A DNA stretch of 64,000 nucleotides from NCBI RefSeq assembly GCF_029582805.1, contig NZ_JAKKUT010000007.1:1-64000 (forward strand). Reading direction: 5' to 3'. Shown here piece by piece: positions 1 through 5,930 of this stretch (the stretch's first letter is position 1; the number at the start of each line of letters is the position of its first letter). Below the pieces are notes generated by a model, which was not told the DNA's origin, made no database searches, and saw only the letters and a list, made by a program, of their open reading frames with translations. The translations under genes were made by a program, and so were the position numbers. This DNA is from Candidatus Synechococcus calcipolaris G9. Its GTDB lineage: Bacteria > Cyanobacteriota > Cyanobacteriia > Thermosynechococcales > Thermosynechococcaceae.

Positions 1-2220
1 TAACTGAGCAACGCTGATCACGTTGCCCTCCTCGTCTTTTGGTTGCCAGCCAGGAATCTGTAAAGCATTGTCTAGCAGAAATAGGATTGAGATTCCCAAA
101 TTTCTAGATAGCATCGCCCCATTATGTAGGGTAGTGATCAAGGTTAGATAATTGGTCACGCGATCAAAGTGAAGCCTTTGGCTAATGGTGTTTAGGAATT
201 GTTGGGCCTTCTTTAACCCCGTCATGATCGCCTTACCCGTTGAGTTAGTGGTTAGGGTGACATCTACGGCATTCTTGGCCACTGCTACCGCCGGATCGCC
301 TGTAACCTCATCAAATGTTTCTATTGACCGGGGGAATGTGTGCAACCCTTGACGAAATGCCACCGCCCCAATGATTCCGGTAATGAGGCCGGCAATTCCC
401 AATACTTGAATATTTCCGGGGTTCTCACCATCTGGGGCCATCTGATCTATGGATTGCCTAACCTGTTGTTCAGGGGCGATCACCGCTTGGTGATTCTCAT
501 TAAAAATCGTGCCGCCGCCTAACAATTCGTAGGTTTTCCGGGAATAGTCGCCCGGATCAACTAATGCCCATTGGGCCGTTTGGTTAAAATCTTGAATCGT
601 AGCGGCCGGTACTGTCCCCGGCAAGACTTGAAACTGGTGGCTTTGCAGTTGCCGACTACCACTTGACCCCGTAACGTAGGCTAACTGAACTTGTTCTAAC
701 TGGGGCCCATTGGCCGCCCCTTGTTCATCCTCCTTATTCAAGGCCTCCAGAATTTTGTTTAGGAGGGTCATAATTAACCCGTATGGCCCTAACTCAAACC
801 GACACGCGCTTGCTGAGTTTGTTGGATTTTCCGGGCCGGGGGTGAATTGATAATTTGGGTTGGGGCTAGGGTTGGGGTTATCTTGGCCTTGCGGGTTGGG
901 GTCAGTGGTGGATGTAACCTGTTCTCCAGGGATGGGAGATGTGATCGGTAGGGGTTGGGGTTGGGGGGATGGTTGCCTAGATGTTCCCGCGTTTTCTGTA
1001 GCGGCCGGGATGGGGTTGGGGTTAGACGGTGTTACCGTTTCTGTTGGCGGATCACCTAATGGCTGATCCGGATTAAATGGATTGGGGCTGGCCGGGCTAT
1101 GGGGTGAATGGGGCGTGTTGGGGTTGTATTCCGGTGGATTGTTGGGGTACGCCGGATCATGGGGCCTTTCTGGGTTAGGGGAGGATGGCCAGGCCGGCGG
1201 GCTTGCATCGCCTGGAATTGGTACGGGCCGATTATTGGGGCCGGCCGGCGGTACGGGATTATTAGGGTTGGCGGCGGGGGCTTCTGGTTGGGGTCTGGGT
1301 AGGGGACTGGCCGGGGATGCTCCAGGTACGGCCGGCGGCCGGGTTTGGGGACTGGCCGGGGTAGCTCCAGGAGATGGCCTAGGGGTTGGGGGGAAGCGAT
1401 CTTTAAGTGGTAGTTCAGGCTGACCTACGGGCGAAAATGAAACATCACCGCCTTGAATATCGTTCAGAACACCGGCTTGGGTGACTCCAGAAACAAACCA
1501 AGTAGAGCCGGCCCCGTTTCTCATATACCAGCCAGTGCGGCCTACAACTTTTTCAAACCGCAGTGAAATAGGCCCTACCGCGTTCCCCCATGTGCCACCG
1601 TTTGTTAACGGAGTCCAATTCCAAGATGTACCGCTTTGCCTATATAGTGTCTTGCTGAATTTGACCGTATAGGTAATGGCCTCACTGGCCTCAGTGGGAT
1701 AATAGGGGCCATTTTCGCCAGGGGGATATTTGATCGGTGGATTTAGGCCAACTAATGGCATCCCCAAAGCGGTGCGAGTGACTACATCCCGAAAATTAGC
1801 TAAGGGTGAGCCATCGTTAGCGTCCCTTAGTTTTTTGTTATAGAAGTCTTCAAGCTCTCGCTGTCTAGCTTGACGTTGACGGGATATATCCTCTAGCTTG
1901 CCAACCTCATCAATCAAGGCGGGAACGGCAAGGGCCGGCCCTAGCAATTTTCCTAGGCCACCTAAGCCGCTAGGCGGCTTGGGTAGTTTGGGCAGTTTGG
2001 GAATTTTAGGGAGTGGAATTTTAGGGGATGTTGGGGCCGGAGTTTGGGGGGTAAGGGGGCCGGGATGGGGGGCCGGTGGTTGGCCCGGGCCATTACCTAA
2101 GTCAACCAGGGGCCGGTTAGCGGACTCTTGGATCTGTTTCTGTTTTAGGGCCTCGGCCGCCGCGATCGCGGCCTCATGGTATTGGGGGGGGATTCTGGCC
2201 AGAGTTGAAGGGGATAGCAT
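1..2220 (-). CDS. Large proline-rich protein of the mobile element, partial (C-terminus beyond left edge)
   Basis: Reading the minus strand from ATG at 2220 gives 740 codons without a stop up to base 1, so the gene continues out of the window. I do not recognise the family. Visible layout: residues 1-40 charged and Ala-rich; 40-80 Pro/Lys-rich; about 115-240 a globular stretch with many aromatic residues (WNWTPL, GWYMRNGAG); about 245-445 a low-complexity linker of Pro, Asn, Ser and Ala with PNPN-type runs; then a second globular part with hydrophobic segments near residues 615-635 and 700-725. Globular head, Pro-rich linker and hydrophobic C-terminal part recall adsorption proteins of filamentous phages, but this is only an analogy. 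The start lies 4 bp after the stop of the small upstream gene, so the two are probably cotranscribed. Confidence 0.75.
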   Translation of the reverse strand, partial: MLSPSTLARIPPQYHEAAIAAAEALKQKQIQESANRPLVDLGNGPGQPPAPHPGPLTPQTPAPTSPKIPLPKIPKLPKLPKPPSGLGGLGKLLGPALAVPALIDEVGKLEDISRQRQARQRELEDFYNKKLRDANDGSPLANFRDVVTRTALGMPLVGLNPPIKYPPGENGPYYPTEASEAITYTVKFSKTLYRQSGTSWNWTPLTNGGTWGNAVGPISLRFEKVVGRTGWYMRNGAGSTWFVSGVTQAGVLNDIQGGDVSFSPVGQPELPLKDRFPPTPRPSPGATPASPQTRPPAVPGASPASPLPRPQPEAPAANPNNPVPPAGPNNRPVPIPGDASPPAWPSSPNPERPHDPAYPNNPPEYNPNTPHSPHSPASPNPFNPDQPLGDPPTETVTPSNPNPIPAATENAGTSRQPSPQPQPLPITSPIPGEQVTSTTDPNPQGQDNPNPSPNPNYQFTPGPENPTNSASACRFELGPYGLIMTLLNKILEALNKEDEQGAANGPQLEQVQLAYVTGSSGSRQLQSHQFQVLPGTVPAATIQDFNQTAQWALVDPGDYSRKTYELLGGGTIFNENHQAVIAPEQQVRQSIDQMAPDGENPGNIQVLGIAGLITGIIGAVAFRQGLHTFPRSIETFDEVTGDPAVAVAKNAVDVTLTTNSTGKAIMTGLKKAQQFLNTISQRLHFDRVTNYLTLITTLHNGAMLSRNLGISILFLLDNALQIPGWQPKDEEGNVISVAQL

Positions 2221-2726: not shown

Positions 2727-3284
2727 ATGAAAATTCTACGATCTGGACAAGCTGAACCGTTAAACCCTGAAACTTTTTTAAGGCTTTATCAGGAATTGAA
2801 ACCGCCCCATAATTTTATTTTAGGGGTGACTTGGTACTGTGCTGAACGGGTTGGGGCCGTTTGCCAACTACGGCGGGCCAATGTTTACGATCGCAAGGGG
2901 AAACCCCTAGATGCTGTGGTAATTCCCGGGGCCAGTAGAAAGGATCGGTGTACCAGGGAAGTATCAGTTACCCCTAAACTGCGAAAATTATTAATCCAGA
3001 TTCCTAAATCTGATTCAGAGTGGCTCTTTCCAAGCCAGTTAAACCCTAAGAAACATATTCATCCTGATTGCTATAAGGCCGCGCTCTCTAGGGCCTGCAA
3101 ACGATTGGGCCTTGTGGGTTACTCTAGCCATTCTGCTAGACGTGGGGCCATCACTCATTTAGCGCGTTCTGGAATATCTGTTAGGGTCATTCAACAAATA
3201 TCGGGCCATAAATCCTTGGCCAGTGTCCAGCGGTATATTGACTTTGATTCGATAGAAGTTAGGGGAGGCCTAGAGCTTCTATAG
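2727..3284 (+). CDS. Minimal tyrosine recombinase (catalytic domain only)
   Basis: A 185-residue protein that is essentially only the catalytic domain of the phage-integrase/XerCD superfamily. The expected active-site set is visible: an Arg in the AERVGAVCQL helix, a Lys in the SRKDR beta-hairpin, HSARR (HxxR), GHKS (the second His) and the nucleophile Tyr in the following QRYID. The N-terminal SAM-like DNA-binding domain that makes normal integrases 300-400 residues long is absent, and no upstream frame supplies it. It could be a truncated but active integrase or resolve element multimers. It ends at 3284, overlapping the 3' end of the convergent 137-residue gene by 6 bp. Confidence 0.85.
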   Translation: MKILRSGQAEPLNPETFLRLYQELKPPHNFILGVTWYCAERVGAVCQLRRANVYDRKGKPLDAVVIPGASRKDRCTREVSVTPKLRKLLIQIPKSDSEWLFPSQLNPKKHIHPDCYKAALSRACKRLGLVGYSSHSARRGAITHLARSGISVRVIQQISGHKSLASVQRYIDFDSIEVRGGLELL

Positions 3285-3692
3285 GGTCTTGCCTATATAT
3301 TTGCTCCTGGTCTTGCCATCCTGTTTCCAGAATCCATACCAGTATGGGCCATGGGGGCATCGTTTACAGCCTGATTTTCCGCAGTATACCCCTTTTAGTT
3401 GGTAGGTCATGGTGGGGCCTGCCATTGGGTTCTTATCTAACCCGTTTTCCGTGGTTGGGGATGAATCGGTTAGATAAGATGCCTTAGAGCTTTCTAAGGC
3501 ATCCGCTTTACGTTTAGGTTTTGCGGCTTCCAGGGGTTGAGGAGTATTTAGGGAATCGGCGATCGGTGCCATGGAATTATTTAGGTCTTGCCGATCGCTG
3601 GACTGATTGCGATCGCCGCCGGCCTGGTTGCGATCGCTTTGAAGGTAAAAATCAAAGGTTAATTGCCGTGGATCATCCCAATGATCATCCAT
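3279..3692 (-). CDS. Small Cys-rich protein with a CGKSGC-RCPHGPYWY motif (DUF6788-like)
   Basis: 137 residues. The N-terminal two thirds is hydrophilic and looks disordered; the last 40 residues hold a compact motif, Y-CGKSGCKRCPHGPYWYGFWK followed by KYIGKTL, which resembles the small Cys/His domain called DUF6788 in mobile elements of cyanobacteria and archaea. Three Cys and one His could bind zinc. Its ATG overlaps the stop of the HTH gene by 8 bp, so the two are translationally coupled and probably act together in control of the element. The family name is from memory of the motif and should be treated as tentative. Confidence 0.65.
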   Translation of the reverse strand: MDDHWDDPRQLTFDFYLQSDRNQAGGDRNQSSDRQDLNNSMAPIADSLNTPQPLEAAKPKRKADALESSKASYLTDSSPTTENGLDKNPMAGPTMTYQLKGVYCGKSGCKRCPHGPYWYGFWKQDGKTRSKYIGKTL

Positions 3693-3927
3693 TTATCTGA
3701 TGGATCCGCTTGATATTCTCCAGGGCTTCTACCAATTCAGCTAGAGAGCAGTTTAGAAGATGGCAAAGCTTCTGCATTTCAGAAGGATTAAGAGTAGGCA
3801 TAGACCTTCCATTCTCCCATTCAGAGATAGTCTGACGGGTGACTCCTAGAAGTTCCCCTAGCTGTTCTTGGCTAAGGCTTACTTTTTGTCTGAGCATCTT
3901 AAAAGTTACCAGATCATCTTTTGCCAT
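3685..3927 (-). CDS. Cro/C1-type helix-turn-helix repressor
   Basis: An 80-residue XRE-family protein. The HTH is clear at about residues 14-45: LSQEQLGELLGVTRQTISEWE, followed by the conserved NGRSMPTL stretch, and a C-terminal helix that probably dimerises. It is divergent from the 78-residue gene at 4099, and the 170-bp space between them contains a near-perfect palindrome plus an extra half site, the layout of an autoregulating lysogeny or copy-control switch. Its stop overlaps the start of the downstream Cys-rich gene. Function as a repressor of the element is inferred from family and context. Confidence 0.9.
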   Translation of the reverse strand: MAKDDLVTFKMLRQKVSLSQEQLGELLGVTRQTISEWENGRSMPTLNPSEMQKLCHLLNCSLAELVEALENIKRIHQING

Positions 3928-4098: not shown

Positions 4099-4335
4099 AT
4101 GCCTAACTTTATATTTCTGCCTAGGATTCAAACAACGTTCAACCTTGAACACTTAGTAAGGATTGAGTGGATAGATTCTGAGATTCAGATTGTACGTTTA
4201 GACTTTGTGGACGGCGATCCCCTGTTTATCGAAATGGCAGAGGCCCTAGAGCTTGAGAAATGGATCGAGGAATACTTTCCAGTGTTTTCGGTCAGGGCCG
4301 TAAATCCTCCACAAGATAAACCAGATAATCTTTAA
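4099..4335 (+). CDS. Hypothetical 78-residue acidic protein
   Basis: A short ORF divergent from the repressor and therefore possibly under its operator. The protein is acidic, with alternating hydrophobic and charged residues in the first half (beta-like) and an amphipathic helix around AEALELEKWIEEYF. No motif is recognised. The opposite strand also holds an 81-codon frame over part of it, but this one has the better start position relative to the operator and a more protein-like composition. It may be an early regulator of the element. Confidence 0.5.
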   Translation: MPNFIFLPRIQTTFNLEHLVRIEWIDSEIQIVRLDFVDGDPLFIEMAEALELEKWIEEYFPVFSVRAVNPPQDKPDNL

Positions 4336-4606
4336 TCCGCCTGATGAGGCCCCATGAAGCCAGGGGCCGAAATCGCTCCAAGACCAGGAGCGATCGCGGA
4401 TCGGCTTCCAACCCCGATCAGCGCGTTTTTCCCTTAGATTCCAGTGCCTACAGACTGTCGTAAGCTTCGGCTTTAATTTTGACCTAGGCACGGTCTAGGG
4501 GGAAACGCTAAACCTACTCGGGCCTATAGGGTGCCGTGAGTTCTGTCGCGGGTGTGACGCAGGCTAAGTAGGTTATCAAAATTTAGTCACACAAAGGGAA
4601 AAATAA
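4336..4606 (+). ncRNA. Structured leader upstream of the IS110 recombinase; candidate bridge-type RNA
   Basis: 271 bp without a convincing ORF lie directly before the IS110 gene, where IS110-group elements encode their bridge RNA. Visible structure: CCTAG (4483-4487) pairing with CTAGG (4495-4499) around a 7-nt loop, and AACCTACT (4511-4518) pairing exactly with AGTAGGTT (4567-4574) around a 48-nt interior. TCTAGGGGG at 4494-4502 is the exact reverse complement of 5920-5928 at the right flank of the element, which is what a guide loop would show, although nine bases may match by chance. The RNA itself is an inference from position and pairing. Confidence 0.4.
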
Positions 4607-5866
4607 ATGAAAGTTCTAGGGATTGACATCTGCTCAAGCTCCATAGTTTGCTGCGTCTTGAATGAACTTCCTGAAGATGTGCAAACGTATTATTTAGAGA
4701 ATGAGCCGATCATTTTGGAATCTGGCTGGGATGCAATTAAAGCGATCGCTGAAATTGATCCAGATGTTGCGGTGTATGAGCCTACGGGAGAATGTTACTC
4801 AAGGCAATGGGTTGAACGCCTGGGAGAATTAGGAATTGAGACTAAAGGGGTAGATCACAAGCGATTAAGGAGCTACAGGATCGGGCTAGGATTGCCTGAC
4901 AAGGATGACTTTGCAGACGCGATAGCCATGGCTTGTTATGCCCTTGATCCTCTGAAAAGTAAGGCGAGATTCGCCTTTCTAAAGCACCGCAGTCCTGAAA
5001 TTAGGGAAATTAGGGCATTAGTCCTACGATTACAACATCTAGATCGGATAAAGAACCCGATAGGTAATCGCCTGAAGCAAGACTTAGCGATCGCGATGCC
5101 TGAACACCAAAATAAAACCATTGATGATGCACCGCTATTTTGGGGCTGGCTGGCCGGTCTAAGAAAATCGGCCCGCTATGACCGCGACCTCGATAACACC
5201 GTGGGTCTAGGGCTTCTACCAGAAACCAGGATAGAGGCCGGGCTTTTGACTCAGATTCTCAAGGAAGAACAACGGATCACCGCTAAATTAGGCCCATTGG
5301 TCAATCAACCCCAATTTTCAGCATATAACAGGGTATTTTCTCGGTATGGCTTCGGACTAAAGATCGGTGCTTTGCTGTTGTCTCAGATATATCCCATCCA
5401 GGACTTTCTAGGGCCGGATGGCAAGCCAGAGATTATCCGCAGGAAGGGCAAAAACAGTGGAAAGCAAACAACGCGCTACCTATCAGAGAGACGTTTTCTG
5501 AAATGTTTGGGGCTTGCTCCAGTGCGAGAATACAGCGGCAAAAGCAAGAAATCTAAGAAGGGTGGATCGGAGCTATGCCGCAAAGCCTTGTGGCAATGGT
5601 GTCATACCCGCGTTGAGCCTAGGACGCGATGGGGCAAAGAGAAAAATATGATCATCAGACAATGGCAAATTTTGTATGGACAGGCTTTAGAGAATTTCAG
5701 CACCAAGGCTGAATTAATTGCTGCTCAAGAAACAGAAAAGAAGCTAAGGCCGGGTGGGATTAAGGTAAAAATGGCCCGGGCCTGGTTAAGAAGACGGGTA
5801 GGGTTAGCTCTATTCCATGATCTAGTAGATTCTGTGAGCCAGGAATCAACGAAGGGGATGGAATAA
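4607..5866 (+). CDS. IS110-family DEDD transposase/recombinase
   Basis: 419 residues, normal for the family. The N-terminal RuvC-like domain shows Asp7 (GIDICSS), Glu58 (YEPTGE) and the Asp cluster at residues 98-104 (DKDDFAD); the C-terminal Transposase_20 domain shows GLAPVREYSGKSKK with the candidate catalytic Ser near residue 310. IS110 enzymes, including the Piv invertases, join DNA through this combined active site, and some are guided by a bridge RNA. Nothing is broken: the gene has an SD-like AAAGGGA before ATG and no frameshift. It is the last gene before the core genome, so it may be the integrase of the whole element or a separate insertion sequence. Confidence 0.9.
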   Translation: MKVLGIDICSSSIVCCVLNELPEDVQTYYLENEPIILESGWDAIKAIAEIDPDVAVYEPTGECYSRQWVERLGELGIETKGVDHKRLRSYRIGLGLPDKDDFADAIAMACYALDPLKSKARFAFLKHRSPEIREIRALVLRLQHLDRIKNPIGNRLKQDLAIAMPEHQNKTIDDAPLFWGWLAGLRKSARYDRDLDNTVGLGLLPETRIEAGLLTQILKEEQRITAKLGPLVNQPQFSAYNRVFSRYGFGLKIGALLLSQIYPIQDFLGPDGKPEIIRRKGKNSGKQTTRYLSERRFLKCLGLAPVREYSGKSKKSKKGGSELCRKALWQWCHTRVEPRTRWGKEKNMIIRQWQILYGQALENFSTKAELIAAQETEKKLRPGGIKVKMARAWLRRRVGLALFHDLVDSVSQESTKGME

Positions 5867-5882
5867 AAAAAAAGCCATAAAA

Positions 5883-5930
5883 TCTCTAGGGTGTCAAAAT
5901 AAAGAACAGGTCATCATCACCCCCTAGAGA
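5883..5930. repeat. Inverted repeat between the IS110 gene and the cysK start codon
   Basis: TCTCTAGGG (5883-5891) and CCCTAGAGA (5922-5930) are exact inverted repeats with a 30-nt loop. The right arm ends directly against the ATG of cysK and takes up the position of its ribosome binding site. It may be the recombination site that forms the element's right end, a terminator-like structure for the transposase transcript, or a translational switch for cysK. Confidence 0.6.

What the first reader, a model, noticed from the sequence alone, without database searches (positions are those of the whole stretch)
4336..5930. IS110 gene with a structured leader that matches its own right flank
The 271-bp non-coding leader carries two clean stems (4483-4499 and 4511-4574). 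TCTAGGGGG at 4494-4502, in the first stem, is the exact reverse complement of 5920-5928 next to cysK, and seven of these bases also match 5884-5891 directly. IS110 elements such as IS621 recognise DNA through a bridge RNA encoded in this position. The match is short, so chance is possible.
Basis: partly seen in the sequence, partly recalled or inferred. Interest (0 to 1): 0.6.

Follow-up and report, generated by a model that had tools for sequence, protein, structure and literature searches.

The report
Ribozyme-capped guide RNA of IS110 element
In cyanobacteria, a jumping element that chooses its landing site with an RNA guide carries a self-cutting hammerhead ribozyme exactly where the guide RNA should begin, which suggests that RNA catalysis makes the guide and gives bacterial hammerheads a likely job.

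Summary
TCTAGGGGG (4494-4502) lies in a closing stem; the guides are the internal-loop strands of two hairpins (4423-4508, 4511-4574). Across 39 relatives the right target guide matches each element's own right flank (0 of 20,000 permutations do as well), and uninterrupted target sites in about 20 relatives read left guide-core-right guide for two independent insertions. The surprise lies just upstream: 4335-4408 is a pseudoknotted type-I hammerhead ribozyme predicted to cut at 4395/4396, at the start of the bridge RNA. The same ribozyme precedes nearly every transposase of family NF051857 (82 distinct copies, core kept, stems and pseudoknot covarying). In 291 cyanobacterial genomes, 30 of 33 ribozyme hits sit just upstream of such a gene; ordinary IS110 loci have none. 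Rfam does not recognise it and no report was found. The elements measured are 10-19 kb with the guide at the right end, far from the left end whose junction promoter drives the IS621 guide. Best explanation: the hammerhead defines the guide's 5' end. Ribozyme activity and guide maturation are inferred, not assayed.

The parts
4335..4408 (+). Type-I hammerhead ribozyme: stem I 4335-4340/4396-4401, CUGAUGA 4341-4347, stem II 4348-4353/4363-4368, GAAA 4369-4372, stem III 4372-4379/4387-4394, C17 at 4395, predicted cut 4395^4396, pseudoknot 4356-4361 with 4403-4408
   Evidence: Covariance model E=4.5e-13; 82 unique relatives with invariant core; covariation 0.550 vs 0.156 shuffled
4399..4419 (+). 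5' stem-loop of the cleaved RNA (GAUCGG/CCGAUC); shares nucleotides with the ribozyme, so the two folds exclude each other
   Evidence: Fold; analogous pairing in many relatives, only partly conserved
4423..4508 (+). Target-binding hairpin of the bridge RNA
   Evidence: Folds
4451..4459 (+). Left target guide plus core, CAGACT-GTC
   Evidence: Matches left junction TAGACT-GTC on own contig C2; same strand verified in relatives by empty sites
4474..4483 (+). Right target guide, TAATTTTGAC (reverse complement GTCAAAATTA)
   Evidence: 9 of 10 to flank 5893-5902; permutation test in 39 relatives
4511..4574 (+). Donor-binding hairpin of the bridge RNA
   Evidence: Folds
4524..4535 (+). Left donor guide CTATAGGGTGCC, matching the right end 5884-5895
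   Evidence: 10 of 12 to CTCTAGGGTGTC; donor guide changes together with right end in relatives
4552..4558 (+). Right donor guide GTGTGAC (reverse complement GTCACAC)
   Evidence: Position in the donor loop; partly matches left end GTC-ACCCCA
4607..5866 (+). IS110-type recombinase, subgroup NF051857, 419 aa
5884..5895 (+). Right end of the element CTCTAGGGT plus core GTC (5893-5895)
   Evidence: Matches donor guide; followed by the guide-specified target half
5893..5902 (+). Core plus right half of the chromosomal target, GTCAAAATAA
4099..4335 (+). Small ORF, 78 aa; its stop codon touches ribozyme stem I
   Evidence: no Pfam match
3685..3927 (-). Cargo: HTH regulator
   Evidence: PF01381
3279..3692 (-). 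Cargo: small protein, weak DUF6788 similarity
2727..3284 (+). Short tyrosine recombinase, conserved in the other large elements
   Evidence: PF00589; tblastn to G148, G119, G274 elements
1..2220 (-). Large ORF running off the contig; part of the element shared with the C1 and C8 copies

Best explanation
4335-5895 is the right-hand end of a large mobile element moved by an RNA-guided IS110-type recombinase. Transcripts that run in from the upstream cargo genes contain a pseudoknot hammerhead ribozyme (4335-4408) that cuts itself at 4395^4396. The 3' product refolds: its first nucleotides leave the ribozyme and form a 5' stem-loop (4399-4419), followed by a target-binding hairpin (4423-4508) and a donor-binding hairpin (4511-4574), that is, a bridge RNA with a ribozyme-made 5' end. 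The recombinase uses it to join the element's circular right end-core-left end to a chromosomal target written in the target loop (here CAGACT-GTC-AAAAT). In IS621 the guide's 5' end is set by a promoter formed at the circle junction next to the left end. Here the guide sits 8-18 kb from the left end in the elements measured, behind cargo, so the hammerhead takes over the job of defining the 5' end and separating guide from cargo mRNA. Shown by comparative genomics: guides, target, core, both ends, ribozyme structure and its association with this recombinase family. Inferred: catalysis in cells, refolding, and that maturation of the guide is the purpose of the cut.
For: Hammerhead: invariant core and covarying stems and pseudoknot in 82 unique copies; 30 of 33 model hits in 291 genomes lie just upstream of NF051857 genes on the same strand, Fisher p=8e-23 by genome; 0 of 22 classic IS110 loci. 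Guides: own flank matched at 5 or more nt in 59% of 37 testable elements vs 0% of swapped pairings, 0/20,000 permutations. Targets: empty sites equal left guide-core-right guide for two insertions. Ends: left ends with TCCCCA after the core, elements of 13.1, 19.0 and about 10-11.5 kb. IS621 guide starts at the junction promoter in the left end (PMC11208160).
Against: No activity or RNA-end data. Seven of 46 subgroup members in the tree, in four places, lack a recognisable ribozyme and still have the two hairpins or parts of them, so it is not strictly required. Some copies have disrupted stem II (for example L021). The window's left end rests on one 9-10 nt guide match on another contig. The donor right guide matches the real left end only partly.
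Confidence: 0.78

Rival explanations
1. The leader is a bridge RNA and the hammerhead is active, but the cut serves mainly to control mRNA (separating or destabilising cargo or transposase messages); guide maturation is incidental or done by other nucleases.
For: The ribozyme also lies in the 5' part of the transposase transcript; members without it exist. Other processing, likely by the transposase, was proposed for seekRNAs (PMC11187229).
Against: The cut falls at the base of the guide's 5' stem-loop, and the ribozyme-guide spacing is kept while upstream genes vary; the association is specific to this IS110 subgroup and absent from classic IS110.
Confidence: 0.17
2. The element is moved by its tyrosine recombinase, and the IS110 unit is a passenger inserted near its right end.
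For: A short tyrosine recombinase is present in all elements compared.
Against: In G148 and G119 both ends of the 13-19 kb unit join at the core predicted by the IS110 guides, and the empty site equals left guide-core-right guide. A passenger IS110 would have its left end beside its own gene.
Confidence: 0.04
3. One reading: TCTAGGGGG at 4494-4502 is the DNA-recognising segment pairing with 5920-5928.
For: Exact 9-nt complementarity.
Against: The segment is paired in a closing stem; its match lies about 25 nt past the junction; the same structural position is not a guide in relatives.
Confidence: 0.02

Closest known systems
IS621 and related IS110 elements with bridge RNA (PMC11208160, PMC11208158)
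   Same: DEDD RuvC-like plus conserved-serine recombinase; RNA with a 5' stem-loop and two internal loops, each with left and right guides that pair with opposite strands; shared short core; circular donor joined at right end-core-left end.
   Different: Guide near the right end beside the gene instead of in the left end at the junction promoter; hammerhead ribozyme at its 5' end; elements of 10-19 kb with cargo; core GAA or GTC; recombinase only distantly similar (E about 1e-8 to 1e-11).
seekRNA of IS1111/IS110 elements (PMC11187229)
   Same: Target-selecting RNA from a non-coding region of the element, long precursor thought to be processed.
   Different: Processing there is suggested to be by the transposase; no natural ribozyme reported (HDV ribozymes were only added to constructs).
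Pseudoknot-containing hammerhead ribozymes (PMC3088659, PMC11300833)
   Same: Same catalytic core, three stems, loop-tail pseudoknot; in bacteria often near integrase genes and prophages.
   Different: No link to IS110 or guide RNAs in that report. This group is not detected by Rfam at gathering scores and hardly at all below them.

Membership tests
[quoted passage not shown]
   D8, E59, D103, D106 (L022 numbering) invariant or nearly so in 30 members; PF01548 E=6.9e-5 but below its cutoff for the window protein; profile matches IS621 and ISCro4 over this domain
IS110 family recombinase | C-terminal Tnp_20 domain with conserved serine | tested here: met
   PF02371 27 bits, cutoff 21.3; S315 invariant
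Bridge RNA | Two hairpins with internal loops in a non-coding region next to the gene | tested here: met
Bridge RNA | Target loop guides match the target site | tested here: met
Bridge RNA | Donor loop guides match the element's own ends | tested here: met
   Left donor guide matches and changes together with the right end; right donor guide matches the left end only partly
Bridge RNA | RNA encoded in the left end, from a promoter at the circle junction (IS621 type) | tested here: not met
   Left ends lie 10-19 kb from the right end, guide is beside the gene at the right
Bridge RNA | Binds the recombinase and directs recombination | not testable with these tools
   Needs biochemistry
Hammerhead ribozyme | CUGANGA, GAAA, A15.1-U16.1, UH cleavage site and three stems | tested here: met
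[quoted passage not shown]
   Pseudoknot covaries in all six pairs, 80% paired
Hammerhead ribozyme | Above Rfam gathering score | tested here: not met
   although catalytic core is complete; best sub-threshold hit 17.3 bits to RF00008
Hammerhead ribozyme | Self-cleavage | not testable with these tools
   Needs an in-vitro transcription assay

The most novel reading that the evidence does not exclude
A natural guide RNA of a programmable DNA recombinase is matured by a cis-acting hammerhead ribozyme, and the ribozyme-to-guide refolding makes the cut directional. Uncoupling the guide from the element end in this way let IS110 mobilise 10-19 kb cargo elements and allowed whole ribozyme-guide-recombinase cassettes to be swapped between otherwise nearly identical elements.
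Probability: 0.65. Interest if true: 0.92.

Novelty: new variant of a known kind. Interest (0 to 1): 0.86.

Why it matters
The functions of bacterial hammerhead ribozymes were described as unproven in the 2011 survey (PMC3088659); here one is tied at nucleotide resolution to a defined partner, a guide RNA. It gives a directly testable answer to how a bridge RNA can get its end, a step left open in the seekRNA work (PMC11187229). It also shows IS110-type recombinases moving 10-19 kb natural cargo with short split guides (about 5 nt on the right plus a short core), a natural starting point for programmable insertion of large DNA.

Tried and rejected
Permissive Rfam scans of the window leader gave only chance microRNA/snoRNA-type hits; the ribozyme was found by reading the sequence and then tested. 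I first took the repeat blocks shared between copies (2.4-3.7 kb) as whole elements; longer comparisons showed much larger mosaic units, and true left ends came only from empty sites. A search for left target half plus the left end predicted from the donor guide (TCACCC) failed because the real left end is TCCCCA. A homologue search with the window protein alone found nothing; a family alignment was needed. No relatives in viral contigs, two plasmid records. Conserved neighbourhood of the two window flanks was tested to confirm the left end, but the two genes are not adjacent in relatives, so the test is uninformative. Pattern search for the window's exact left junction with the wrong left-end letters gave only chance hits.

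Full report
WHAT WAS CHECKED FIRST. The gene at 4607-5866 belongs to NCBIfam NF051857, a divergent IS110 subgroup. The profile of its family reaches ISCro4 and IS621 in the PDB, and the catalytic residues are conserved.

THE HAMMERHEAD. Reading 4335-4408 gives ATCCGC-CTGATGA-GGCCCC..GGGGCC-GAAA-TCGCTCC..GGAGCGA-TC^GCGGAT, a complete hammerhead, with loop II GAAGCC complementary to GGCTTC just after stem I. The two sibling copies in the same genome have compensatory changes. A descriptor scan then found it upstream of nearly all homologues. In 82 unique copies the catalytic nucleotides are kept (copies were required to have CTGANGA and GAAA, so the informative part is the pairing). On a 52-sequence alignment 88.2% of pair cells form standard pairs versus 68.5% in shuffles; the covariation score is 0.550 versus 0.156 shuffled and at most 0.135 with partners slid; five pairs of stem I, four of stem II, five of stem III and all six pseudoknot pairs show changes on both sides. 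A covariance model finds the window copy at E=4.5e-13. In the same 291 cyanobacterial genomes as the NF051857 search, the model gives 33 hits in 21 genomes. Thirty lie shortly upstream of an NF051857 gene on its strand; one more (G084) precedes the same type of leader at a contig end; two are elsewhere. At genome level 18 have both, 3 only the gene, 3 only the ribozyme, 267 neither (Fisher p=8e-23; related genomes are not independent, so this is a descriptive figure). The model hits 66 of 79 named loci, all cyanobacterial; several of the rest are cut by contig ends or are fragments. None of 22 classic IS110 loci has it by the descriptor scan. In the protein tree the ribozyme is spread through the whole subgroup and its seven absences fall in four places, consistent with an old feature lost a few times.

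THE GUIDE RNA. After the predicted cut the window RNA folds into a 5' stem-loop, a hairpin with internal loop CAGACTGTCGT / TAATTTTGACC, and a hairpin with internal loop ATAGGGTG / GTGTGACGC. The consensus of 22 leaders gives the same two hairpins. Copies with known right ends end in CTAGA[CG]TGAA at or soon after the stop codon. The 5' strand of hairpin 2 carries that sequence (donor guide) and changes with it: GAGAATGAA with TAGAATGAA in one G123 copy where its sibling has GAGACTGAA with TAGACTGAA; GAGAGGGAA with TAGAGGGAA in the C8 copy of the window's genome. The 3' strand of hairpin 1 is the reverse complement of the flank that follows the core: of 37 testable elements 59% match at 5 or more consecutive nucleotides, against none of the swapped pairings, and 0 of 20,000 permutations reach the observed total. 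Sibling copies with different guides sit next to correspondingly different flanks.

TARGET SITES AND ENDS. Relatives lacking the insertion show the uninterrupted target. Nine loci related to G148 read TCAGGG-TGAA-CGAAAC or close variants, which is the left guide TCAGGGTGAA plus right guide GAACGAAAA. Eleven related to G119 read TTGTCT-GAA-TGGGC or close variants, its left guide TTTGTCTGAA plus right guide GAATGGGCG. Using the left flanks of these empty sites, left ends were found..TTGTCTGAA|TCCCCAGTG.. and ..TTAGGGTGAA|TCCCCAACG....TAAAAAGAA|TCCCCA.. occurs in both G274 copies. The elements are therefore about 13.1 kb, 19.0 kb and 10-11.5 kb. For the window the core is GTC: the right flank is GTCAAAATAA (5893-5902) against guide TAATTTTGAC, and a left junction TAGACT-GTC-ACCCCA lies near the start of contig C2; the guide reads CAGACT-GTC, one mismatch. 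The element thus appears to span C2 (reverse, up to about 1.42 kb) and C7:1-5895 with an assembly gap. This placement rests on the guide match alone, because neighbouring genes are not syntenic in relatives.

WHY A RIBOZYME. In IS621 the guide is made from a promoter formed at the circle junction and starts in the left end (PMC11208160). Here the guide is near the right end, many kilobases from the left end, directly after cargo genes; the stop codon of the 78-aa ORF at 4099-4335 touches ribozyme stem I. A self-cleaving RNA at the guide's start would define the 5' end whatever the promoter. The product's 5' stem-loop uses the ribozyme's own stem I and pseudoknot strands (4399-4408), so the two folds exclude each other; refolding after the cut would make it irreversible (inference; this pairing is only partly conserved across leaders). 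Pseudoknot hammerheads are known to be fast (PMC3088659, PMC11300833).

CARGO AND MODULARITY. The elements carry a short tyrosine recombinase and variable genes, including collagen-like or tail-fibre-like ORFs and HTH regulators. In the window's genome three elements share upstream blocks that are up to 96-98% identical, but their recombinases are only 37-39% identical to the window's and fall in different clades. The identity stops at 4343, inside the ribozyme core, so ribozyme-guide-recombinase appears to be exchanged as a cassette.

LITERATURE. Searches of the open-access library for hammerhead with IS110, bridge RNA, seekRNA, transposase or cyanobacteria found no report of this link. Preprints and most subscription papers were not searched, so description elsewhere cannot be excluded. 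Rfam does not score these ribozymes at its thresholds.

VERDICT. Bridge RNA: very likely (about 0.95). Functional hammerhead: likely (about 0.87). Hammerhead as the maker of the bridge RNA's 5' end: probable (about 0.75). The recombinase is an IS110 member by the features tested; the ribozyme-processed guide and the large element with an internal guide make it a new variant.

Noticed in passing
window 4586-4592; leaders in alignment A4 just before the start codon: GTCACAC, complementary to the right donor guide GTGTGAC, sits just upstream of the transposase start; relatives with guide GGGTGATTC have GAACCACCC or similar there. It matches the guide better than the true left end does and may control translation or mimic a left end.
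   Followed up: partly
window 4250-4343; L002, L003: Three elements of one genome share nearly identical upstream modules but carry divergent ribozyme-guide-recombinase cassettes; identity breaks inside the hammerhead core at 4343.
   Followed up: partly
L011, L030, L150, L156, L159, L162, L039: Subgroup members without a hammerhead; in L011 the site holds a long perfect hairpin that may be a ribozyme remnant, and Okeania copies have short leaders with two compact hairpins.
   Followed up: partly
L268 (G113:C29:125446), L272 (G261:C36:18215): Two hammerhead model hits not next to an IS110-type gene; context not identified.
   Followed up: partly
L021/L059, L178, L181: Hammerheads with extra sequence inserted in the stem II region, some of it rich in GCGATCGC; the core is kept. 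Activity of these copies is doubtful.
   Followed up: no
L221:461-1417 (own contig C2): ORF with weak YkuD L,D-transpeptidase similarity whose stop codon lies at the presumed left end of the window's element.
   Followed up: partly
L184, L188, L189: Elements or their surroundings hold collagen-repeat or tail-fibre-like ORFs, and the elements keep a short tyrosine recombinase; why an RNA-guided element keeps one is unexplained.
   Followed up: partly
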